This document shows, piece by piece, positions 2,938 through 13,233 of a DNA stretch of 64,000 bases; position 1 is the first letter of the stretch, and every line of letters starts with the position of its first letter. The stretch is from contig NZ_CADFEB010000002.1 of NCBI RefSeq assembly GCF_902833085.1, positions 620,001 through 684,000 on the forward strand, read 5' to 3'. Origin of the DNA: Burkholderia ubonensis (GTDB lineage Bacteria; Pseudomonadota; Gammaproteobacteria; Burkholderiales; Burkholderiaceae). A model generated the notes under the pieces. It saw nothing but the letters and a program-made list of their open reading frames with translations. It searched no databases and was not told the origin of the DNA. Both the position numbers and the translations under genes were made by a program.

Positions 2938-2969
2938 ATGCGAGGCGGCAGGTCGTGCCGCCCGCGCAT
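2938..2969. terminator. Hairpin between convergent genes
   Basis: GGCGGCA (2944-2950) pairs perfectly with TGCCGCC (2956-2962) around a five-base loop, and the outer ATGCG (2938-2942) can pair with CGCAT (2965-2969). It lies exactly between two convergent stop codons. There is no T-run, so it is a candidate bidirectional terminator or mRNA end-stabilising structure only. Confidence 0.4.
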
Positions 2970-3898
2970 CACACGTACAGGTACCGGACGAGGTGGAAGA
3001 ACACCGGCGCCGCGAAGCAGATCGAGTCGACGCGGTCGAGCATCCCGCCGTGGCCGGCGATCATCGAGCCCCAGTCCTTCGTGCCGAGCGAGCGCTTGAC
3101 GGCCGACAGCACGAGCCCGCCGACGAAGCCCGCGATCACGATCGCGAGCGAGATGCCGAACGCCGCGCCGAAGCTGAACGGCGTCACGCGATACAGCGAC
3201 GCGCCGCACAGCGTCGCGAGCAGGCCGCCGCCGACGAAGCCCTCGATCGTCTTCGACGGCGACAGGCGCGGCGCGATCTTGCGGCGTCCGAACAGCTTGC
3301 CGACCACGTACTGCAGCACGTCGCTGATCTGCACGACGACGAGGAAGAAGAACAGCAGCAGCGCGTTCTGGCCGGTGTAGTGCGGAATGTCGAGGATCAG
3401 CACCGCGGGCGCATGGCTCAGCCCGTACACGCAGACCATCAGCGCCCAGTTGATCTTCGCGTTGCGGCTCAGGAACTCGCGCGTGTCCTGCGTGAGCGCC
3501 GACACGAGCGACATCGCGAAGAACAGGTGCACCGGCACGAAGATCGAGTACATCCCGTACCAGTCGATCGCGAGCAGCAGGTACTGCACGGGAATCGCGA
3601 CGAAGAACGCGATGAACAGCGTCGTGTGGTCGCTCGCGGTGGTCGGCGTGAGCGTGATGAATTCGCGCAGCGTCAGGTACGACAGCAGCGCGAACACGAG
3701 GTAGGTGATGTTGTTGCCGAGGCCGATCGCGATCACCATCACCGCGATCATCGCCCACCACGCGTGGATGCGCTGGTTCAGGTTGACGATGGTCGCGCTC
3801 GCGCCGCCGCTGCGCGCGCCGAGGATCGCGCCGATCACGGTCGCGACGGCCAGGAGGGCCGTGACGCCCGCGACCAGTTCCCAGAAGAGAGTACGCAT
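2969..3898 (-). CDS. ynbB: CdsA-family phosphatidate cytidylyltransferase (YnbB-like)
   Basis: This 309-residue integral membrane protein matches phosphatidate cytidylyltransferases, which make CDP-diacylglycerol from phosphatidate and CTP. The CTP-transferase signature is visible near the C-terminus: SAVKRSLGTKDWG followed by GHGGMLDRVDS. An upstream SPSKTIEGF motif contains the usual Ser/Lys pair. About seven to eight hydrophobic segments precede these. The gene starts 33 bp after the acyltransferase and reads the same way. The neighbouring ynbA-, ynbC- and ynbD-like genes make it more likely to be the YnbB-type paralogue than the housekeeping cdsA, which in proteobacteria normally sits beside uppS and dxr. 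Confidence 0.85.
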   Translation of the reverse strand: MRTLFWELVAGVTALLAVATVIGAILGARSGGASATIVNLNQRIHAWWAMIAVMVIAIGLGNNITYLVFALLSYLTLREFITLTPTTASDHTTLFIAFFVAIPVQYLLLAIDWYGMYSIFVPVHLFFAMSLVSALTQDTREFLSRNAKINWALMVCVYGLSHAPAVLILDIPHYTGQNALLLFFFLVVVQISDVLQYVVGKLFGRRKIAPRLSPSKTIEGFVGGGLLATLCGASLYRVTPFSFGAAFGISLAIVIAGFVGGLVLSAVKRSLGTKDWGSMIAGHGGMLDRVDSICFAAPVFFHLVRYLYV

Positions 3899-3931
3899 AT
3901 CGAAGTCCGGATGAGAAGGGAAGCGCGGCGT

Positions 3932-4561
3932 TCAGCCTGCGGGGCGCTGCGGCGCGAGCGCGACGATCGCGTCGCGCATGCGGGCGAGGAACGACGGCTT
4001 GTCCTCCTGGTCGCCGCGCGCCTCGTTCGCGCCGAAGTGCACCTTGCAGATCAGCGGCACCGGCCAGATCGCGCCTTTCGGCATGATCCGCTGCAGGTTC
4101 TCCAGGTAGACCGGCGCGAGCGCGACGTTCGGGAACTCGCTCGCGAGATGGAACAGCCCGCTCTTGAACGGCTGCGGCAGCGCTTCCGCGCTGCGCGTGC
4201 CTTCGGGGAAGATGATGATCGAATGGCCCTGCGCGAGCGCGTCGCGCACGGGGTCGAGCGGGTCGCCGCCGGTTTCGCGGTGGCGGTCGATCAGCACGAC
4301 GTTCAGCAGCTTCTGCGCGATGTGGCGCTTCAGGTCGCTGCTGTCCCAGTAGTCGCGCGCGGCGACCGGCCGCACGACCGCGCGCACGTTGCGCGGCAGC
4401 GCGGCGAGGATCGCGAGCGTGTCGATGTGGCTCGTATGGTTCGAGAAGTAGATTTTCTGCGTCGGCGAGGGCGGCGCCTGATGCCAGACCGGATACGCGC
4501 CGGCGACGAGGCGCACGATCGACAGCAGGAAATCGCGTTGCCAAGCATGCAGGATGTTCAT
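3932..4561 (-). CDS. 1-acylglycerol-3-phosphate O-acyltransferase family protein (PlsC-like)
   Basis: The product carries the two acyltransferase blocks of the PlsC/LPLAT family: NHTSHID (H-X4-D, catalytic) and, about 90 residues later, IIIFPEGTRS. A hydrophobic N-terminal stretch would anchor it to the inner membrane. I chose the ATG at 4561 (209 residues) because AGGAGG stands ten bases upstream; an in-frame ATG at 4585 lacks such a site. It is the first gene of a two-gene leftward unit with the CdsA-like gene. Together they would give lysophosphatidate to phosphatidate to CDP-diacylglycerol. E. coli ynb does not include this gene. Confidence 0.85.
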   Translation of the reverse strand: MNILHAWQRDFLLSIVRLVAGAYPVWHQAPPSPTQKIYFSNHTSHIDTLAILAALPRNVRAVVRPVAARDYWDSSDLKRHIAQKLLNVVLIDRHRETGGDPLDPVRDALAQGHSIIIFPEGTRSAEALPQPFKSGLFHLASEFPNVALAPVYLENLQRIMPKGAIWPVPLICKVHFGANEARGDQEDKPSFLARMRDAIVALAPQRPAG

Positions 4562-5011
4562 CGGCGACGCGCCTCCTGTTCGCATGCCTGCCGCGCCGCA
4601 TCGCTGCGGCGGGCAGGTTCCCGGAATGCCGGCGCGCTGCGTGGCGCGCCGGACGGCCCATATTTGACTATTTTCAAGTTTGTGAATGCCTGTCGCGGGC
4701 CCGCGATAATCGGCGGAAGTCGCGATGAACGGCGTGAATGACCGCTATTGGACAGGTGCGCGAATGCGGCGAATACGATGTGGCGCGGCATTCGGGCCAG
4801 CGGATTATCGCGAGTTTCCGCGAAAAACACCAGAATGCCGCGCCGCGGCCCGCGGCCCGCGGCCCGCGGCGTCGGGCGTCGCGCGACACCTTTCGGCATG
4901 CTTGACGCACGATGGCCGCTCGGCGACGATTATGGCCGTCCATTGATACGACCTCTCCGCCATCCGGGGCATGACCGGCGAAGACGTCCCGCAAGCCGTG
5001 CGAATAAAACG
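4562..5011. other. Divergent intergenic region of the lipid module
   Basis: About 450 bp separate the leftward acyltransferase from the rightward YnbA-like gene, and promoters for both must lie here. The only distinct structure is a heptanucleotide repeat (4845-4870). The frame of the YnbA-like gene stays open upstream to 4748, but that extension is arginine-rich and unlike the family, so I treat it as non-coding. No confident -35/-10 pair was found. Confidence 0.5.
4845..4870. repeat. Heptanucleotide tandem repeat (GCGGCCC, 3.7 copies)
   Basis: Three exact copies of GCGGCCC (4845-4851, 4852-4858, 4859-4865) are followed by a partial fourth copy, about 140 bp upstream of the YnbA-like start codon. 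Seven is not a multiple of three and the repeat is outside the predicted coding region, so a change in copy number would alter promoter spacing, not a protein. Confidence 0.8.
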
Positions 5012-5617
5012 ATGAGCCTCTACGCACTCAAACCCAAATTCCAGAACTGCCTGCGCCCGCTCGCGGATTCCCTTGCCGAACGCGGCGTCACCGCGAACCA
5101 GGTCACGCTGTTCGCCGCCGGCGGCTCGATCGTCGTCGGCGCGCTCGCCGGGCTCGGCGGGCTCGCCAAGGCGCTGTTCCTGCTGATCCCGCTGTGGCTG
5201 TTCTTGCGCATGGCGCTGAATGCGATCGACGGCATGCTCGCGCGCGAGCACGGGCAGAAGAGCACGCTCGGCGCGTACCTGAACGAGCTCGGCGACATCG
5301 TGTCGGACGTCGCGCTCGTGCTGCCGTTCCTCGCGGTGCCGGCGTTCGCTCAAGCGGACGTCTGGCTGTTCGCACTGCTGGCGGTGATCGTCGAAGGCGC
5401 GGGGCTGATCGGGCCGCTCGCCGGCGCGAGCCGGCGCTACGACGGCCCGTTCGGCAAGAGCGACCGGGCGCTCGCGCTCGGCGCGTTCGCGCTGTGGATC
5501 GGCGTCGGCCTGCCGGTCGGCGGCATCGCCGCATGGCTGTGGCGGCTCCTGATCGTGCTGTCGGTCGTGACCGTGGTGCGGCGCGTGCGGGCCGGCGTCG
5601 CCGAAGCGGGCGGCTGA
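5012..5617 (+). CDS. ynbA: CDP-alcohol phosphatidyltransferase (YnbA-like)
   Basis: From the ATG at 5012 the product has 201 residues, the same size as E. coli YnbA as I recall it, and begins MSLYALKPKFQ like that protein. It is a membrane enzyme with about six hydrophobic segments. It should transfer a phosphatidyl group from CDP-diacylglycerol to an unknown alcohol. The family motif is present as N70-x2-D73-G74-x2-A77-R78-x8-G87-x3-N91-x3-D95; two of the four usual aspartates are asparagines. E. coli YnbA shows the same replacements as far as I remember, so this looks like a clade trait. The acceptor alcohol cannot be read from sequence. Confidence 0.85.
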   Translation: MSLYALKPKFQNCLRPLADSLAERGVTANQVTLFAAGGSIVVGALAGLGGLAKALFLLIPLWLFLRMALNAIDGMLAREHGQKSTLGAYLNELGDIVSDVALVLPFLAVPAFAQADVWLFALLAVIVEGAGLIGPLAGASRRYDGPFGKSDRALALGAFALWIGVGLPVGGIAAWLWRLLIVLSVVTVVRRVRAGVAEAGG

Positions 5618-5690
5618 CCCGGGCAACGCCGGGGAACGGCGTCGTGGGGTGGCGTCGAATAGATTCGAATAACGAAACGAGAGAAAACGC

Positions 5691-7457
5691 ATGAGCGCAC
5701 GCATCGCCCGCGAGGCAGACTTCACCACCCATGACGGCGAAACGCTGTTCTACCGTCACTGGCCCGCGACTGGCGCGCGCTGCCGCGGCGCGATCGTGCT
5801 GCTGCATCGCGGGCATGAGCATTCGGCGCGCGTCGCGCACCTCGTCGACGAGCTCGACCTGCCCGAATTCGCGTTCTTCGCGTGGGACGCGCGCGGTCAC
5901 GGCCGCTCGCCGGGCGCGCGCGGCTACAGCCCGAGCGCGGCCGCGTCGGTGCGCGACCTGCAGACCTTCGTCGAGCACATCCGCGACGCGCACGGCATCG
6001 CGATCGAGGACATGGCGGTGGTCGGCCAGAGCGTCGGCGCGGTGCTCGCGGCGACCTGGGCGCACGACTACGCGCCGCCGATCCGCTGCCTCGTCGTCGC
6101 GTCGCCGGCGTTCCGCATCAAGCTCTACGTGCCGTTCGCGCGGCCCGGCCTGAGGCTGATGCACAAGCTGCGCGGGCTGTTCTACGTGAACAGCTACGTG
6201 AAGCCGAAATTCCTCACGCACGACCCCGAGCGCATCGCGAGCTACGCGGCCGATCCGCTGATCACGCGGCCGATCGCGGTCAACATGCTGCTCGACCTGC
6301 ACGACACCGCGCAGCGGATCGTCGCGGACGCCGCGGCGATCACCGTGCCGACGCAGCTGCTGATCTCCGGCGCGGACTGGGTCGTCCATCGCGGCCCGCA
6401 GGACCGCTTCTACGAGCGCCTCGGCGCGGCGCGCAAGGAGCGCATCGTGCTGCCGGGCTTCTATCACGACACGCTCGGCGAGCGCGACCGCGCGCAGGCG
6501 CTCGCGCCGCTGCGCGCGTTCGTGCTGCGCGAATTCGATGCGCCGAGCCCGTGCGTGTCGCTCGCCGACGCCGACCGGCGCGGCGCGTTCCACGACGAAT
6601 ACGCGGCGCTCCAGCTGCCGCCCGCGAATCCGCTCACGCGCGCTTACTGGGCGGTCACGCGGGCAGGGCTGAAGGCGGGCGGCGCGCTGTCCGACGGCAT
6701 CGCGCTCGGGCTGAAGCTCGGCTTCGATTCGGGCTCGACGCTCGACTACGTGTACCGCAACCATGCGCAGGGGCGCCTCGGCGTCGGCCGGCTGATCGAC
6801 CGCACCTATCTTGATTCGCCGGGCTGGGCCGGCATCCGCCAGCGCAAGCTGCACCTGCAGGAACTGATCGGCGCGGCGATCGCGCGGCTGCGCGGCGCCA
6901 GCGCGCCGGTGCGGATCGTCGACATCGCGGCCGGGCACGGCCGCTACGTGCTCGACGCGATCGCGTCGGCGGCCGAGCGCGACGGCGCCGCGCCCGACGA
7001 CATCACGCTGCGCGACTACAGCCCGCCGAACGTCGAGGCAGGGCGCGTGCTGATCGCGCAGCGCGGCCTCGAGCCGATCGCGCGCTTCGAGCGCGGCGAC
7101 GCGTTCGACGAGGCGTCGCTCGCGACGCTCGAGCCGCGCCCGACGCTCGCGATCGTGTCGGGCCTCTACGAGCTGTTCGGCGAGAACGCGCTGATCGAGC
7201 GCTCGCTGCGCGGGCTCGCGCAGGCGGTGCCGCCGGGCGGCTATCTCGTCTACACGGGGCAGCCGTGGCATCCGCAGCTCGAGTTCATCGCGCGCGCGCT
7301 GAACAACCACCGCGGCGACGCGACCTGGGTGATGCGGCGCCGCTCGCAGGCCGAGATGGACGAGCTCGTCGCGCGCGCCGGGTTCCGCAAGCTCGACCAG
7401 CGGATCGACGAGATGGGGATCTTCACGGTCAGTCTCGCGCAGCGGGTCGACGCGTGA
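5691..7457 (+). CDS. ynbC: Alpha/beta hydrolase - class I methyltransferase fusion (YnbC-like)
   Basis: The 588-residue protein has two domains. Residues 1 to about 290 form a serine hydrolase of the monoacylglycerol-lipase type, with nucleophile elbow VGQSVGA and the sequence GRSPGARGYS typical of that group. Residues from about 390 to the end form a SAM-dependent methyltransferase with motif I as VDIAAGHGRYV. Length and fusion match E. coli YnbC. No signal peptide or membrane segment is seen, so it probably works at the cytoplasmic face on a lipid made by the neighbouring enzymes. Its stop overlaps the GTG of the next gene. The chemical roles (deacylation, head-group methylation) are inference. 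Confidence 0.82.
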   Translation: MSARIAREADFTTHDGETLFYRHWPATGARCRGAIVLLHRGHEHSARVAHLVDELDLPEFAFFAWDARGHGRSPGARGYSPSAAASVRDLQTFVEHIRDAHGIAIEDMAVVGQSVGAVLAATWAHDYAPPIRCLVVASPAFRIKLYVPFARPGLRLMHKLRGLFYVNSYVKPKFLTHDPERIASYAADPLITRPIAVNMLLDLHDTAQRIVADAAAITVPTQLLISGADWVVHRGPQDRFYERLGAARKERIVLPGFYHDTLGERDRAQALAPLRAFVLREFDAPSPCVSLADADRRGAFHDEYAALQLPPANPLTRAYWAVTRAGLKAGGALSDGIALGLKLGFDSGSTLDYVYRNHAQGRLGVGRLIDRTYLDSPGWAGIRQRKLHLQELIGAAIARLRGASAPVRIVDIAAGHGRYVLDAIASAAERDGAAPDDITLRDYSPPNVEAGRVLIAQRGLEPIARFERGDAFDEASLATLEPRPTLAIVSGLYELFGENALIERSLRGLAQAVPPGGYLVYTGQPWHPQLEFIARALNNHRGDATWVMRRRSQAEMDELVARAGFRKLDQRIDEMGIFTVSLAQRVDA

Positions 7458-8893
7458 CGAGCGAGCTCGGCGGCGGCGCACGCGGCCTTTCTGCACCTGC
7501 ACCTGCACCGGCGGCGGCCGGTGCGCGCGACGCGTCGTTTGCGCTGCGCCTGCGCTGGCTTGCGGTGATGGGCGCGGTGTTCTTCTCGAGCTACGGCTTC
7601 GCGAACTGGCTCGCCGCGCGGCGCGCCGCGGTGCCGACCTTCGCGTTCGGCTGGGAGCATGCGATCCCGTTCGTGCCGTGGACGATCGTGCCGTACTGGT
7701 CGATCGACCTGCTGTACGCGCTGTCGTTCTTCTTCTGGACCCGCCGCGACGACCTGCTCGATCACGTGAAGCGATTGCTGACCGTGCAGCTGATCTCGGT
7801 CGCGTGCTTCATCGCGTGGCCGCTGCGCTTCGGCTTCGAGCGGCCCGACGCGGGCGGCGTGGCAGGCGCGTTGTTCACGCTGCTGATGGGCTTCGACAAG
7901 CCGTTCAACCAGGCGCCGTCGCTGCATATCGGCCTGCTCGTCGTGCTGTGGGCAGTCTACGCAACGCACCTGCGCGGCACGCTGGCGCGCGCCGCGCTGC
8001 ATCTGTGGTTCGCGGCGATCGGCGTGTCGGTGCTGACGACCTACCAGCATCACGTGATCGACGTGCCGACCGGCGCGGCGGTCGGCTGTCTCGCGCTGCT
8101 CCTGTTCCCGCTGCGCGACACGTCGGGCCGGCGGCCGGTCACGGACGCGGCGCCTTCCATGGCGCCCTCGGCGGCGAGCCGCGCGCTGGCGCGCCGCTAT
8201 GCGCTCGGCGCGGGCGTTGTCGCATTGTTCGCGCTGCTCGCGCTCGCTTCCATTGCGCGCGCGGCCGGCTGGGCGCTGGCGGCGGGGTGGGTCGCGCTGG
8301 CGCTCGCGTGCGTCGCATGGATCTATTGGCGCGGCGCGCCGGGCGCGTTCCAGAAGGACGCCGACGGCCGGTTCCCGCCGTTCATGCAATGGCTGCTCGC
8401 ACCGACGATCGCCGGCGCGTTCGTCAACTCGCGCGCGTGGACGTTCCGGCGGCCCGCGCCCGCGCGGCTCGACGAGCGCGTGTCGATCGGCCGCACGCCG
8501 ACCACGCGCGAGCTGCGGCGGCACGGCTTTACCGGCGTCGTCGACCTGACCGCCGAGATGCCGCGCTGGGCCGCGGCGGACCCGTCGTGCGCGTATGCGA
8601 CGGTGCCGCAGCTCGATCTCGTCGCGCCGACGGCGCGGCAATTGCAGCAGGCCGTCGCGGCGCTCGAGCGCCTGCACGGCGAGGGGCGCGACGTGCTCGT
8701 CTGCTGCGCGCTCGGCTACGGGCGCAGCGTGCTGTGCGCGGCCGCATGGATCGCGATGCGGCGCGGGCTGCACGATGCGCGCGACGCGCTGGCCGCGGTG
8801 CGGGCGGTCCGGCCGCGCGCGGTGTGGTCGGATGAAGCGGTGGCCGTGCTGCAGGACTGGATCGACCGCCGGGCGGCGGAGGAGGGCGCATGA
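7454..8893 (+). CDS. ynbD: PAP2 phosphatase - dual-specificity phosphatase fusion (YnbD-like)
   Basis: A GTG at 7454 overlapping the previous stop (GTGA) gives 479 residues; the frame is open further upstream only inside ynbC. The N-terminal half is a membrane PAP2-type region with APSLHIG and TYQHHVIDVPTG, the second and third phosphatase blocks (catalytic His pair and Asp). After two more hydrophobic segments, the C-terminal part is a cysteine phosphatase with CCALGYGRS (C-x5-R). E. coli YnbD has the same combination. Dual-specificity phosphatases of the PTPMT1 type dephosphorylate phosphatidylglycerophosphate, so a lipid-phosphate substrate is a reasonable guess. Confidence 0.82.
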   Translation: MTSELGGGARGLSAPAPAPAAAGARDASFALRLRWLAVMGAVFFSSYGFANWLAARRAAVPTFAFGWEHAIPFVPWTIVPYWSIDLLYALSFFFWTRRDDLLDHVKRLLTVQLISVACFIAWPLRFGFERPDAGGVAGALFTLLMGFDKPFNQAPSLHIGLLVVLWAVYATHLRGTLARAALHLWFAAIGVSVLTTYQHHVIDVPTGAAVGCLALLLFPLRDTSGRRPVTDAAPSMAPSAASRALARRYALGAGVVALFALLALASIARAAGWALAAGWVALALACVAWIYWRGAPGAFQKDADGRFPPFMQWLLAPTIAGAFVNSRAWTFRRPAPARLDERVSIGRTPTTRELRRHGFTGVVDLTAEMPRWAAADPSCAYATVPQLDLVAPTARQLQQAVAALERLHGEGRDVLVCCALGYGRSVLCAAAWIAMRRGLHDARDALAAVRAVRPRAVWSDEAVAVLQDWIDRRAAEEGA

Positions 8894-9369
8894 TGCGCGA
8901 CCGGTCCGCGCCGTACCGGATCGCCGCGGCGCGCGGCGCGCTCGATGCGGGCGCGTGGGCGGTCGCCGTTGCACTCGTGGCGGCGGGCGCGGGATGGTGG
9001 GTCGCGTCGGGCTGGAGCGCCGCGCCGTTCGCGCAGGCGCTGCTCGCGAGCGTCAGCACCGCGTCGGGCGTCGCGGCGCTGTGGTTCGCGGTGCGGATCG
9101 CGATCGACCGCAGATTGTTCGCGGCGCTGGCTGATGCGGTGTCGGCAGCGGCGCCGCCGGAGCCCGCCGGCGCCGATGCGCTTGCCGCGCTCGACCGCGC
9201 GCTCGCCGACCTCGGCTGGATCGACGCGACGAAGGCCGGCCGCACGCTCGATGCGCGGGTGCGCGGCGCGATCGGCCTGTGCCGGACCGGCGTATGGATC
9301 GCGGTCGTCCAGTGGCTCGTCGTCGGGGCCGCGATCGCGGCGTCGGGGATCTGGCGCGTGCTGGCCTGA
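8890..9369 (+). CDS. Small hypothetical membrane protein of the lipid module
   Basis: This 159-residue protein starts at an ATG that overlaps the previous stop codon (ATGA), so it belongs to the ynb-like operon. Two hydrophobic segments lie near residues 20-40 and 45-68. A soluble helical part rich in Ala, Asp and Leu follows, and a third hydrophobic segment lies at about 133-155. No family is recognised, and E. coli ynb has no counterpart. It could be an accessory or assembly subunit for the phosphatase fusion. It ends ten bases from the convergent cyclase gene. Confidence 0.65.
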   Translation: MMRDRSAPYRIAAARGALDAGAWAVAVALVAAGAGWWVASGWSAAPFAQALLASVSTASGVAALWFAVRIAIDRRLFAALADAVSAAAPPEPAGADALAALDRALADLGWIDATKAGRTLDARVRGAIGLCRTGVWIAVVQWLVVGAAIAASGIWRVLA

Positions 9370-9379
9370 CGTCAGCCCG

Positions 9380-10414
9380 TCACGCCGTCACTTCATCGCG
9401 CTGCGCGCGATGCGGCCGCGACCGCTTGACCTCGTACATCGCCTGGTCCGCGTGCTCGATCAGCGCGTCCATTTCGGTGCCGTCGTCCGGCAGCACCGCG
9501 ATCCCGACGCTGACGCCGAGCGCGAGCGGCCGGCCTTCGAACTCGAACGGCGCGCCGACCTGGCGGGCCAGCCGGTCGCTTTGCGTCTGCGCGTCGTCGC
9601 GGCCGCGGATGTTCGGCAGGATCACGCCGAATTCGTCGCCGCCGAGCCGCGCGACCGTGTCCGAACGCCGCACGACGCCCATCATCCGCGCCGCGGTCTC
9701 GCGCAGCGCGGCGTCGCCCGCACGGTGCCCGAGCACGTCGTTGATCGGCTTCAGGCCGTCCATGTCGATGTTGAGGATGCCGAGCCTGCCGTTGCCGCGC
9801 AGCGCGGTGTGCATCGACTGCCGCAGGCGGTCGTAGAACAGCGCGCGGTTCGGCAGGCCGGTGAGCGCGTCGTGCGTCGCGCGCAGGTACAGCTCGTTCG
9901 CCTCGTTGCGCGCCGCATGGAACATCGCCGCGGCGATCAGCCCGGCCATCAGGCGCAACGTGCCGGCGTCGGCCGGCGAAAAGCCGTCCACGCTCGGCGA
10001 CATCACCTTGAGCACGCCGACCGTCGTGTCGAGGTGCGTGAGCGGCATCACGAGCATCGAGCGCAGTCCGACGCGGCGGCACGCGTCGCGATCGACCCGC
10101 GGATCGATCTCCGAATCGACGCAGCGCAGCATCTCGCCCTCGGTCACGCAGCGGCCCGACAGGCTGCCCGAGCGCCGCAGCCGCAGCCCGAGCATCCCGG
10201 CGGCGTTGCCCGATGCGGCGCGATACACCATGTCGTCGCCTTCCGCGAACTCGACCGCCGCGCCGGCCGCGCCCGTGAGGCGCGGCATCAGGTCGGCGAC
10301 GTAGGCCATCACGCTGCCGAGGTCGAGGCCGAGCCGGGCGATTTCGGTCTGCGCGGCGATGATGCGCAGCAGGGTTTCCGGGGGCGGGATGGCGATGTCT
10401 GAGGATTGATGCAC
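9380..10414 (-). CDS. GAF-domain diguanylate cyclase
   Basis: The protein joins a GAF sensor (about residues 15-165) to a GGDEF domain (about 180-335). With the GTG at 10414 as start (344 residues), the active-site loop GGDEF is at 258-262. An RRSD inhibitory I-site lies at 249-252, exactly five residues upstream, so product feedback inhibition is predicted. There is no membrane segment, so this is a cytoplasmic sensor of an unknown small ligand. The frame stays open to 10603; I prefer the GTG because a -10-like TATGCT (10463-10468, minus strand) lies about 50 bp upstream. It diverges from the c-di-GMP-dependent cellulose operon. Confidence 0.88.
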   Translation of the reverse strand: MHQSSDIAIPPPETLLRIIAAQTEIARLGLDLGSVMAYVADLMPRLTGAAGAAVEFAEGDDMVYRAASGNAAGMLGLRLRRSGSLSGRCVTEGEMLRCVDSEIDPRVDRDACRRVGLRSMLVMPLTHLDTTVGVLKVMSPSVDGFSPADAGTLRLMAGLIAAAMFHAARNEANELYLRATHDALTGLPNRALFYDRLRQSMHTALRGNGRLGILNIDMDGLKPINDVLGHRAGDAALRETAARMMGVVRRSDTVARLGGDEFGVILPNIRGRDDAQTQSDRLARQVGAPFEFEGRPLALGVSVGIAVLPDDGTEMDALIEHADQAMYEVKRSRPHRAQRDEVTA

Positions 10415-10917
10415 GTTGGTTTTTCCACGAAGAAAACGCGGCGGGCGGTTGCGGAATGCGGTAGCATACGCGCCGCTTACGCAGAGGCGCGCGGCCTGCA
10501 ACGGGCTCGCCGTCGACGTTTCGCCTGCCGGATTCAGGGCCCGTGCACGATTTTCCGCGCCGGCAGCGTCCGGCATTGTGCCGTTCGGCGATTTCAGCAG
10601 CAACGGCGCAATTCATACCTCTCACGCACGGCGTGCAGCATTTCTGACCGGAATCGGGGCTTTCATGCAGTGCATGTTCGAACTGGGGTAATTTTTAATC
10701 TATTTTTGAGATAGTGTGACGAATCGGATTTGCGCGGGTGCCGGTGCCAGGCATGCGCAGCGGCGCGGGGGCGCTGTCGTGGCCAGCCACGCCGATTCGA
10801 TCACCACATCAGGACCTGGATTCAAGGGGAAGCATTGGGGATGTGCATTCGCCTGCCCGGCTGCGCCGCGTGCGTCGCTTTCGACACTGTCGACCATCAC
10901 ATGAAGCGGGGCCGCGC
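10415..10917. other. Divergent regulatory region, cyclase / cellulose operon
   Basis: About 500 bp lie between the diguanylate cyclase and bcsB. An AT-rich patch at 10690-10715 breaks the GC-rich background and is the likeliest promoter area for bcs. Minus-strand TATGCT (10463-10468) may be the -10 of the cyclase gene. A short hairpin CGTGG/CCACG lies near 10780. In Burkholderia cenocepacia a CRP/FNR-type c-di-GMP effector (Bcam1349/BerA, from memory) activates the cellulose operon; I could not identify a clear palindromic site for it here. Confidence 0.45.
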
Positions 10918-10921
10918 ATGA
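10841..10921 (+). CDS. Possible 26-residue leader peptide before bcsB
   Basis: An ATG at 10841, preceded at 12 bases by AAGGGGA, opens a 26-codon frame that ends MKRGRA-stop. Its TGA overlaps the bcsB ATG in an ATGA arrangement, the same coupling used between later bcs genes. The peptide has three cysteines and no recognised family. It may be a translated leader that couples ribosomes into bcsB, or chance. Confidence 0.25.
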   Translation: MCIRLPGCAACVAFDTVDHHMKRGRA

Positions 10922-13233
10922 AGCCGGCCGCATCGCTGTTCGTCTCGATCGCGGCCGCGGCCGGCACGTTCTACGCGGCCTGCCTGCCGGCCGCCACGCC
11001 GGTCGCGCCCGGCACGGCCGGGGCCGCCGCAATTCCGGCTCCGGTTCCGGCGCCGGTCGCAGCCCAGGTGGCGGCTCCGACGGCCCCGGCGAGCGCGCCG
11101 TCCGCCGTCCGGGGCGCGACCACCGTGCGCCTGCCGTTCTCGACGCTCGGCGCGTTCGATCCGCTGCGCCTGCGCGGCGCCGACGACGCGCGCACGATCA
11201 GCGCCGGCGTGCGGCTCGACCGCGTGGTGAGCGCCGCGCGGCTGCGCCTGACCTACGCGTACTCGCCGTCGCTGGTGTTCCCGCTGTCGCACCTGAAGGT
11301 GTCGATCAACGGCGAGGTGGTCGCCACCGTGCCGTTCGACGCGCCGCGCGCGGGCCGCACGGTCACGCAGGAGATCCCGATCGATCCGCGCTATTTCTCG
11401 GATTTCAACCAGATCGGGCTGCGGCTGATCGCGCACTATTCGCTCGATCACTGCGAAGATCCCGCGAATTCGGCGCTGTGGGCCGACGTGAGCCCGACGA
11501 GCGAGCTGATCCTCGACGAGACGCCGGTGCGCCTGCCGAACGATCTCGCGCTGCTGCCCGCGCCGTTCTTCGACCGCCGCGACAACGGGCGGGTGCGCCT
11601 GCCGTTCGTGCTGCCCGCGTCGCCGGACACCGCGACGCTGCGCAGCGCGGGCGTGCTCGCGTCGTGGTTCGGCGCGCTCGCGGACTACCGCCATGCGCGC
11701 TTCCCGGTGTCGTCCGCGCTGCCGGCGAACGACCACGCGGTGCTGATCGGCCCGGTCGCCGCGCTGCCGCCGGGCCTCGCGCTGCCGTCCGTCAACGGCC
11801 CGACGCTCGCGGTCGTCGACAATCCCGCCGCGCCGGAGCGCAAGGTGCTGGTCGTCACCGGCCGCACGGCCGCCGAAGTCGACGACGCGGCCGCGACGCT
11901 GGTGCTCGGCCGCGCGGCGCTGTCGGGGCCGTCGGCGACGGTCGCGCACGTCGACGCCGGCGCGCCGCGCAAGCCGTACGACGCGCCGCGCTGGCTGCCG
12001 GTCGACCGGCCGATCGCGTTCCGCGAGCTGGTGGCGGACCCGCGCGAGCTGGAAGTGCGCGGCACGTCGCCGGACGCGATCCGGCTGAACCTGCGGGTGC
12101 CGGCCGACCTGCATTCGTGGAACGGCGCGGGCGTGCCGATCACGCTGCGCTACCGCTACACGGCGCCGACCGTGCAGGACAATTCGACGCTCGCGGTCGA
12201 GATCAACGACCAGCTCGTGAAGTCGTACCGGCTCGGGCCGTCCCACGCCGAGGACGCGCGCGGCCGCATGCAGCTGCCGTTGCTGTCGGTGCCGGAAGGG
12301 CGCGTGACGAGCGACGTCGACATTCCGGCGTTCCGCGTCGGCAGCGGCAACCAGCTGCAGTTCCGCTTCACGCTCGATTCGCAGAAGACGGGCCTGTGCT
12401 CGAGCACCGCGACCGAGCCGCAGCGCGCGGCGATCGACCCGGATTCGACGATCGATTTCTCGCACTTCGTCCATTACGCGCAACTGCCGAACCTCGCGTA
12501 TTTCGCGAACAGCGGCTTCCCGTTCACGCGCTTCGCGGACCTGTCGCAGACCGCGGTCGTGCTCGCCGACCGGCCGTCGCCGCAGGAGCTCGAGGCGTAC
12601 CTGACGATGCTCGGCCACATGGGCGAGTGGACCGGCTACCCGGCGCTGCGCGTGCAGGTCGCGCGCCCGGGCGACATGGCCGCGCTGCGCGACAAGGACC
12701 TGCTGGTGATCGACGGCGCGCCGTCGTTCCCGCTGCTCGAGCGCTGGCGGGCGGCGCTGCCGCTGTCGTTCGGCGAGCAGGGCGGCGCGGGCGGCGCGCG
12801 GGTCGCGTTCACGGTCAAGGAGCGCTGGCGCAACGGCGTCGGCATGGCCGAGGGCGGCGCGCACATCGAGCAGACCGGCTCGCTCGCGGCGCTCGTCGGC
12901 TTCGAGCTGCCGGACAGCCGCGGCCGCAGCGTCGTCGCGCTGACGGCGACCGACCAGCCGCAGCTCGGCACGCTGCTCGACGTGTTCGAGAACGCCGGGC
13001 TCGTGTCGCAGCTGCAGGGCGATCTCGCGGTGGTGCGGCCGGGCACGGTCGACAGCATGCGCGTGGGCGAGCCTTACGTGGTCGGCTTCGTGCCGTGGTA
13101 TGCGCGGCTCTGGACGCATGCGGCGCGGCATCCGGTCGTGCTCGGCGCGGTCGGCGTCGTCGCGGGCCTGCTGCTCGCGCTCGGCGCGTTCAGCGTGCTG
13201 CAAAGGATTGCCGCGCGGCGACGGGGGATGTGA
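10918..13233 (+). CDS. bcsB: Cellulose synthase regulatory/periplasmic subunit BcsB
   Basis: The 771-residue protein starts with a signal peptide (MKPAASLFVSIAAAAGTFYA) followed by an Ala/Pro-rich spacer to about residue 65. The bulk is the BcsB region of paired carbohydrate-binding and flavodoxin-like domains; the segment beginning RLPFSTLGAFDPLRLRG is typical. A single C-terminal membrane helix (about 740-762) ends in a basic tail, RRRGM. BcsB sits in the periplasm, anchors to BcsA and guides the emerging glucan. It is the first gene of this operon, whereas in most species bcsA precedes bcsB. The start is fixed by the signal peptide. bcsZ follows after three bases. Confidence 0.92.
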   Translation: MKPAASLFVSIAAAAGTFYAACLPAATPVAPGTAGAAAIPAPVPAPVAAQVAAPTAPASAPSAVRGATTVRLPFSTLGAFDPLRLRGADDARTISAGVRLDRVVSAARLRLTYAYSPSLVFPLSHLKVSINGEVVATVPFDAPRAGRTVTQEIPIDPRYFSDFNQIGLRLIAHYSLDHCEDPANSALWADVSPTSELILDETPVRLPNDLALLPAPFFDRRDNGRVRLPFVLPASPDTATLRSAGVLASWFGALADYRHARFPVSSALPANDHAVLIGPVAALPPGLALPSVNGPTLAVVDNPAAPERKVLVVTGRTAAEVDDAAATLVLGRAALSGPSATVAHVDAGAPRKPYDAPRWLPVDRPIAFRELVADPRELEVRGTSPDAIRLNLRVPADLHSWNGAGVPITLRYRYTAPTVQDNSTLAVEINDQLVKSYRLGPSHAEDARGRMQLPLLSVPEGRVTSDVDIPAFRVGSGNQLQFRFTLDSQKTGLCSSTATEPQRAAIDPDSTIDFSHFVHYAQLPNLAYFANSGFPFTRFADLSQTAVVLADRPSPQELEAYLTMLGHMGEWTGYPALRVQVARPGDMAALRDKDLLVIDGAPSFPLLERWRAALPLSFGEQGGAGGARVAFTVKERWRNGVGMAEGGAHIEQTGSLAALVGFELPDSRGRSVVALTATDQPQLGTLLDVFENAGLVSQLQGDLAVVRPGTVDSMRVGEPYVVGFVPWYARLWTHAARHPVVLGAVGVVAGLLLALGAFSVLQRIAARRRGM

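What the first reader, a model, noticed from the sequence alone, without database searches (positions are those of the whole stretch)
2969..9369. Six-gene ynbABCD-like lipid module with an added acyltransferase and membrane protein
An acyltransferase, a CdsA-like enzyme, a CDP-alcohol phosphatidyltransferase, a hydrolase-methyltransferase fusion and a PAP2-DSP fusion form a self-contained route. In order: lysophosphatidate, phosphatidate, CDP-diacylglycerol, phosphatidyl-alcohol(-phosphate), then dephosphorylation and possibly methylation or deacylation. The E. coli ynbABCD genes have no settled product that I know of. Here the set is split into divergent arms and gains the acyltransferase and a coupled small membrane protein. 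My inference is that it makes a non-housekeeping phospholipid.
Basis: partly seen in the sequence, partly recalled or inferred. Interest (0 to 1): 0.72.

Follow-up and report, generated by a model that had tools for sequence, protein, structure and literature searches.

The report
Burkholderia version of Arc1 lipid pathway
This six-gene cluster is the Burkholderia counterpart of a lipid pathway (Arc1) that helps Pseudomonas survive attacks by other bacteria; E. coli carries a reduced four-gene form, the lipid it makes is unknown, and its head-group enzyme lacks two residues usually held to be essential.

Summary
In detail: six intact genes at 2969-9369, in two divergent arms. "ynbABCD plus added genes" is the wrong way round: the six-gene set is the commonest layout among 97 loci compared. 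It corresponds one to one to P. aeruginosa PA2541-PA2536 (arc1A-F), published in 2022 as a danger-induced pathway protecting against type VI secretion attack and tied in 2025 to lipase effectors. The E. coli ynbABCD operon is that cluster without the acyltransferase and small membrane genes. I found no paper making the ynb-arc1 link (searches). The new point is the CDP-alcohol phosphotransferase: two of the four signature aspartates (D1, D3) are asparagine in 99 of 99 sequences, window included, while the four paralogues in the same genome keep aspartate. A distant second clade also has both asparagines and sits beside PlsC and CdsA-like genes in 9 of 9 cases examined. Most likely the module makes a non-housekeeping phosphatidyl-alcohol that hardens the envelope against phospholipases. 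The product, head group, methyltransferase role and small protein are inferred or unknown.

The parts
2969..3898 (-). CdsA-like CDP-diacylglycerol synthase (arc1F / YnbB type)
   Evidence: PF01148 2.6e-62; 37% to YnbB; 54% to the arc1F position; S265, K268, R269, K274, D275, H283, D288, R289, D291 kept in 84-85 of 85
3932..4585 (-). PlsC-type acyltransferase (arc1E)
   Evidence: PF01553 4.1e-16; HxxxxD and EGxR residues 82 of 82; 43% to the arc1E position
4586..5011 (.). 426-base intergenic region between the divergent arms; TTGACG box at 4902-4907 with a weak -10-like sequence 17 bases downstream, pointing to the + arm
   Evidence: TTGACG in 14 of 14 intergenic regions examined (Burkholderia, Paraburkholderia, Caballeronia, Trinickia); promoter role inferred
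5012..5617 (+). CDP-alcohol phosphotransferase with Asn at signature positions D1 (N70) and D3 (N91) (arc1A / YnbA type)
   Evidence: PF01066 9.1e-5; 44% to YnbA; 56% to the PA2541 position; N70, D73, N91, E92, D95 in 99 of 99
5691..7457 (+). monoacylglycerol-lipase-type hydrolase fused to a SAM methyltransferase (arc1B / YnbC type)
   Evidence: Hydrolase_4 and Methyltransf_20; 58% to YnbC; hydrolase triad S114/D229/H259 in 83-84 of 84
7454..8893 (+). PAP2-like membrane domain fused to a dual-specificity phosphatase (arc1C / YnbD type); GTG start overlapping the previous stop
   Evidence: DSPc 2.2e-12; 38% to YnbD; H158, H199, D203, D388, C418, R424 in 79 of 79; model pLDDT 88.9
8890..9369 (+). 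small membrane protein (arc1D), undescribed family, three long helices plus one short one; ATG overlaps the previous stop
   Evidence: no Pfam/NCBIfam family (39 members); 36% to the arc1D position, E 4e-6; model pLDDT 91.9; no PDB fold match at E 0.001 or better

Best explanation
The module is the Burkholderia orthologue of the arc1A-F pathway. Shown by comparison: one-to-one orthology and intact catalytic residues. Inferred chemistry: the PlsC-type enzyme makes phosphatidate, the CdsA-like enzyme activates it to CDP-diacylglycerol, and the Asn/Asn phosphotransferase puts a head group on it, probably a phosphorylated alcohol. The DSP domain then removes the outer phosphate (as PTPMT1 does for phosphatidylglycerophosphate; recalled), the PAP2-like domain acts on the outer face, and the hydrolase-methyltransferase trims and methylates. 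Inferred purpose: an inducible, specialised phospholipid that makes the envelope less vulnerable to phospholipase attack. The small membrane protein is probably a scaffold for the membrane enzymes (weakest step).
For: Arc1 is Gac/Rsm-induced and protects against a T6SS attacker (PMC8926400, sections 5-6 read); arc1A is needed for full resistance to TseL and Tle1 lipases (PMC12663445, passages). Gene set and order recur: 34 of 97 loci in the single order A-F, 10 in the window's divergent layout. Catalytic residues conserved. Second CdsA-type gene and four other CDP-alcohol phosphotransferases elsewhere in the genome.
Against: I saw no report of a measured lipid product for any member. Loss of two metal-ligand aspartates could mean an altered or absent reaction: in CEPT1, alanine at two of these aspartates nearly abolishes activity (PMC10156783, passages). 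Nine of 97 loci show only phosphotransferase, PlsC and CdsA (5 co-directional, 4 divergent, of which L053 is cut by the contig end), ten with L057, whose CdsA-like hit falls in two frames, so the hydrolase, phosphatase and small protein are not always present. Defence was shown for P. aeruginosa, not Burkholderia; in the 2022 paper removal of no single effector tested changed the arc1 defect, one Arc1 gene scored for Tle3, and Arc1 loss also modestly raised attacker survival; in 2025 its role was called auxiliary to arc3A. The phospho-acceptor idea is weak: R191 aligns with a phosphate-binding Arg of PIP synthase, but R152 is one residue off in the printed alignment, and the position after D4, always K or R in PIP synthases, is V, I, M, L or A in 99 of 99.
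Confidence: 0.62

Rival explanations
1. Arc1 is a stress-dedicated second route to an ordinary lipid, phosphatidylglycerol or cardiolipin: PlsC, CdsA, a PgsA-like step and a PGP-phosphatase-like DSP.
For: Ting et al. note that four of the genes resemble enzymes of phosphatidylglycerol synthesis; the PAP2-DSP profile matches PTPMT1 at 1.1e-8 by sequence and by fold (rank 18).
Against: The phosphotransferase is nearer to archaetidylinositol-phosphate and PIP synthase profiles (1.4e-19, 2.9e-11) than to pgsA (0.0024) and carries the Asn/Asn change, while the four other phosphotransferases of the genome are canonical. It does not explain the hydrolase-methyltransferase.
Confidence: 0.18
2. The CdsA-like gene and its partners serve synthesis of the glycolipid MPIase.
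For: Overproduced E. coli YnbB raises MPIase but does not replace CdsA, and lack of YnbB worsened procoat handling in a cdsA-depleted, Tam41p-expressing strain (PMC6362211, passages). [quoted passage not shown]
Against: The ynbB knockout alone leaves MPIase not significantly changed. The model does not use the phosphotransferase, phosphatase, lipase or methyltransferase.
Confidence: 0.12
3. The module is mainly a lysophospholipid clean-up system: the lipase domain degrades and the acyltransferase re-acylates lipids damaged by phospholipases.
For: Lipase-type hydrolase close to monoacylglycerol lipases (8.9e-21) plus PlsC; lipase phenotype of arc1A.
Against: The gene whose deletion gives the phenotype is the phosphotransferase, and phosphotransferase plus PlsC plus CdsA persist where no lipase gene is seen.
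Confidence: 0.1
4. An inositol phospholipid pathway.
For: Best structural and NCBIfam relatives of the phosphotransferase use inositol phosphate; the PAP2 part has a marginal hit to phosphoinositol dihydroceramide synthase (E 0.05).
Against: No myo-inositol-phosphate synthase (PF07994) match in the genome, nor in the E. coli control, a species that carries ynb. Positions equivalent to MtPIPS R94 and K135 are not conserved as such. Uptake of inositol was not tested.
Confidence: 0.04

Closest known systems
P. aeruginosa arc1A-F (PA2541-PA2536), antagonism resistance cluster 1
   Same: All six genes, same domain fusions, 36-63% identity
   Different: Here split into divergent arms (CdsA-PlsC on the minus strand); regulation in Burkholderia unknown
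E. coli ynbABCD
   Same: Orthologues of four of the six genes (37-58%)
   Different: The E. coli operon lacks the PlsC and small membrane genes and has the CdsA-like gene second
PIP synthase (class I CDP-alcohol phosphotransferase, e.g. PDB 6h53)
   Same: Best profile match to a solved structure, 6.2e-11; shared fold expected, not modelled here
   Different: D1 and D3 replaced by Asn; R94 and K135 equivalents not kept
PTPMT1 / Tk-PTP dual-specificity phosphatases
   Same: CX5R site and general-acid Asp; sequence and fold matches
   Different: Fused to a PAP2-like membrane domain; the residue before the catalytic Cys, His in the classical motif (recalled), is Cys in 71 of 79

Membership tests
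arc1 (PA2541-36) cluster | Six orthologous genes together | tested here: met
   BLAST against the region identified by the published primer sequences; 5 of 8 primer pieces found exactly, 3 not found
arc1 (PA2541-36) cluster | Single co-directional operon | tested here: not met
   The window and 10 of 97 compared loci are divergent with all six genes; gene content unchanged, so treated as a rearrangement, not as failure of orthology
arc1 (PA2541-36) cluster | Induction by Gac/Rsm and defence phenotype | not testable with these tools
   Seen in print for P. aeruginosa only
E. coli ynbABCD type | Orthologues of ynbA, B, C, D | tested here: met
Class I CDP-alcohol phosphotransferase | Family domain (PF01066 above cut-off) | tested here: met
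   23.3 bits against a cut-off of 22
Class I CDP-alcohol phosphotransferase | Signature D1xxD2GxxAR...GxxxD3xxxD4 with four Asp | tested here: not met
   N at D1 and D3 in 99 of 99; D2 and D4 kept. Homology to the family stands; the canonical metal site does not
PIP synthase | Inositol-phosphate pocket residues (MtPIPS R94, K135, R155, R195 equivalents) | tested here: inconclusive
   R195 equivalent kept in 98 of 99, R155 ambiguous by one residue, R94 and K135 equivalents lost
PTPMT1-like phospholipid phosphatase | CX5R catalytic loop and general-acid Asp | tested here: met
   79 of 79; substrate not testable here
Known anti-phage defence proteins (PADLOC) | Match to a PADLOC model | tested here: not met
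   Of six proteins only one hit, mad2, over residues 385-525 of the methyltransferase protein, 1.4e-5

The most novel reading that the evidence does not exclude
Asn/Asn CDP-alcohol phosphotransferases form a separate catalytic class with a re-engineered metal site, hard-wired to a dedicated PlsC-CdsA pair in two deep clades, and make a so far unseen phospholipid. Arc1/Ynb is the elaborated version of this core, used for defence against phospholipases.
Probability: 0.35. Interest if true: 0.78.

Novelty: new member of a known kind. Interest (0 to 1): 0.52.

Why it matters
It joins two literatures that I did not find joined in print: the unexplained ynbABCD operon of E. coli K-12 and the Arc1 defence cluster of Pseudomonas. 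That makes the ynb question testable in a laboratory strain with a clear phenotype, survival of lipase attack. It also names a specific biochemical anomaly, two missing metal-ligand aspartates, that any account of the enzyme must explain, and predicts a specialised lipid to look for.

Tried and rejected
Inositol-lipid reading: considered because the phosphotransferase is closest to PIP synthase; set low because PF07994 has no match in the genome and pocket residues differ. Anti-phage reading: PADLOC gave only a partial methyltransferase hit. Fold of the small protein: confident model, no PDB relative at E 0.001. Fold of the PAP2-DSP protein: the 50 rows shown, of 104 at E 0.001 or better, read as phosphatase-domain matches, so nothing was learned on whether the PAP2 part is a phosphatase or a phosphotransferase. 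First search for the PA2541 primer sequence, in another genus group, found 0 of 59 genomes; the next found 1 of 25. Housekeeping role: less likely, since a second CdsA-type gene and four other phosphotransferases exist. A paper on PgsA in P. aeruginosa (PMC8429429, passages) and one on Gac/Rsm (PMC11888443, one passage) gave nothing on the product.

Limits of the counts: at least three locus pairs are the same contig found twice, judged by equal contig lengths (L038/L070, L042/L077, L043/L094), so distinct loci number at most 94 of 97 and 96 of 99. Gene-order strings were sorted by stop-to-stop frame; one search looked at six of the odd ones with trimmed starts and moved L067 and L086 to the A-F order, L084 and L104 to A-F without the small protein, and L062 and L065 to the divergent layout; the rest were not rechecked. 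Some loci are cut by contig ends. The small protein was found by sequence in 46 of 99. Of 21 loci without it but with PAP2-DSP and PlsC close together on one strand, 20 had some frame in the gap; 14 of these I judged by eye to be the same family and 12 went into the alignment; six had only a wrong-frame or PlsC-overlapping candidate.

No other odds changed.
Full report
What is there. Six intact frames lie at 2969-9369. On the minus strand: a CdsA-like enzyme (2969-3898) and a PlsC-type acyltransferase (3932-4585). On the plus strand: a CDP-alcohol phosphotransferase (5012-5617), a hydrolase-methyltransferase fusion (5691-7457), a PAP2-DSP fusion (7454-8893; start chosen by me, the mechanical listing begins at 7265) and a small membrane protein (8890-9369). 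Two neighbouring pairs of the plus arm overlap by four bases, which suggests translational coupling. The nearest named phosphotransferase is from Burkholderia sp. BCC0506, 91% identical, so I call the organism Burkholderia.

Relation to E. coli. Against K-12, the four shared proteins match YnbB, YnbA, YnbC and YnbD over most of their length at 37, 44, 58 and 38% identity; the acyltransferase and small protein match none of the four ynb proteins.

Relation to Arc1. A paper search for PA2536-PA2541 led to Ting et al. 2022 (PMC8926400; abstract, passages and sections 5 and 6 seen; figures not held). It names PA2541-36 arc1A-F, describes five of six genes as phospholipid-related, and reports that deletion strains survive less well against Burkholderia thailandensis with an active T6SS. 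To check orthology I used the published deletion primers: the PA2541 start sequence occurs in 1 of 25 genomes of one genus group (0 of 59 in another). Of eight primer pieces looked for in that region, five are found exactly and three are not (an upstream PA2541 piece, the PA2536 stop piece and a downstream PA2536 piece). The PA2541 start and stop pieces bracket the phosphotransferase gene and the PA2536 start piece marks the start of the CdsA-like gene. The six genes run phosphotransferase, hydrolase-methyltransferase, PAP2-DSP, small protein, PlsC, CdsA, at 56, 63, 47, 36, 43 and 54% to the window. A 2025 paper (PMC12663445, passages) adds that arc1A is needed for full resistance to the TseL and Tle1 lipases, in an auxiliary role beside arc3A.

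Distribution. In an even draw of 299 genomes of the phylum the methyltransferase family PF12147 occurs in 17 and a strong phosphotransferase match (166 bits or more) in 25, the own genome included in both. Among 97 loci (16 from the first draw, 80 named, E. coli), 34 have all six genes in one order, 17 the same without a small protein found by sequence, 10 the window's divergent layout with all six, 5 only phosphotransferase, PlsC and CdsA in one direction and 4 only these three in divergent layout (one cut by its contig end); the rest are other or cut layouts (corrected for six loci). Of 91 loci with at least 4 kb on each side, 75 have both the hydrolase-methyltransferase and PAP2-DSP genes; of these 66 also have PlsC, 66 CdsA and 44 the small protein by sequence. 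A diverged small protein sits between PAP2-DSP and PlsC in at least 12 to 14 of 21 further loci. So the acyltransferase and small protein are normal parts.

The anomaly. The published signature of this enzyme class has four conserved aspartates that bind metal, with D4 the presumed base (PMC4634129, passages; PMC6506517, passages). Mutation of D4 to Asn nearly abolishes PIP synthase, and alanine at two of the aspartates nearly abolishes human CEPT1 (PMC10156783, passages). In 99 of 99 arc1A-type proteins (window, E. coli and the arc1 region included) D1 and D3 are Asn, the residue after D3 is Glu, and D2 and D4 are kept; the alignment to PIP synthase puts the two Asn on D1 and D3. The four other CDP-alcohol phosphotransferases of the same genome have Asp at both. 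In the profile search 25 hits score 166 bits or more: 24 have Asn/Asn and one (L155/L166) has Ser at D1. Of the 15 weaker hits I examined 11: nine (46-75 bits) have Asn/Asn and have lost the Arg of the signature, and all nine lie beside PlsC and CdsA-like genes; the two with Asp (41-42 bits) have no PlsC, one having a weak CdsA hit at the edge of its stretch. Four (38-43 bits) were not examined. Five strong-hit loci without the methyltransferase gene (L169-L173) also carry PlsC and CdsA; L166 carries neither. I infer a core of phosphotransferase, PlsC and CdsA in two clades; no tree was built.

Other catalytic sites. Conserved: hydrolase triad (83-84 of 84), PlsC motifs (82 of 82), CdsA signature residues (84-85 of 85), PAP2 His/His/Asp and DSP Cys/Arg/Asp (79 of 79). 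The PAP2 part has Val where the usual motif 3 has Arg (V193; the motif itself is recalled). Nothing in these counts suggests decay.

Function. Steps shown: orthology and intact sites. Steps inferred: the chain phosphatidate, CDP-diacylglycerol, phosphatidyl-alcohol (phosphate), dephosphorylation, and methylation or deacylation. The acceptor is probably not inositol phosphate made by the cell: no PF07994 match in the genome, none in the E. coli control, and pocket residues differ. A phosphorylated acceptor is suggested by R191 and by the attached phosphatase, but the evidence is thin. YnbB has been linked to the glycolipid MPIase, mainly on overproduction (PMC6362211, passages), and a further paper's title says so (reference seen). 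EcoCyc once listed YnbA as a cholinephosphotransferase and removed it (PMC3781023, passages).

Regulation. The 426-base divergent region contains a TTGACG box kept in 14 of 14 regions examined. What controls it is unknown.

Novelty. The module is a new member of a known kind. I did not find the ynb-arc1 link (the main text of Ting et al. holds no 'ynb'), nor a description of the Asn/Asn phosphotransferases in two searches seen as listings and in passages of four papers; the library lacks most subscription papers.

Noticed in passing
L161-L165, L167, L168, L174, L175: A second, distant clade of CDP-alcohol phosphotransferases with Asn at D1 and D3 and without the signature Arg, in 9 of 9 examined cases beside PlsC and CdsA-like genes.
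   Followed up: partly
window 9380-10603 and 10918-13233: A GAF-GGDEF diguanylate cyclase gene directly follows the module, then a cellulose synthase subunit gene bcsB. A 2026 E. coli c-di-GMP screen lists ynbA in a table of genes (PMC13031359, one passage).
   Followed up: no
window 4800-4817: Block GCGGATTATCGCGAGTTT in the divergent intergenic region, upstream of the TTGACG box, exact in 10 of 14 regions compared; possible regulator site.
   Followed up: no
L166 (G287): A 410-aa frame with an arc1A-like C-terminal domain, Ser at D1, Asn at D3 and no PlsC or CdsA neighbour found.
   Followed up: no
L090-L092, L058-L060: Haemophilus and some Burkholderiaceae show only phosphotransferase, PlsC and CdsA in the flanks examined.
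   Followed up: no
G110 and G204: Phosphotransferase hits flagged with one internal stop, so possibly decaying or shorter copies.
   Followed up: no
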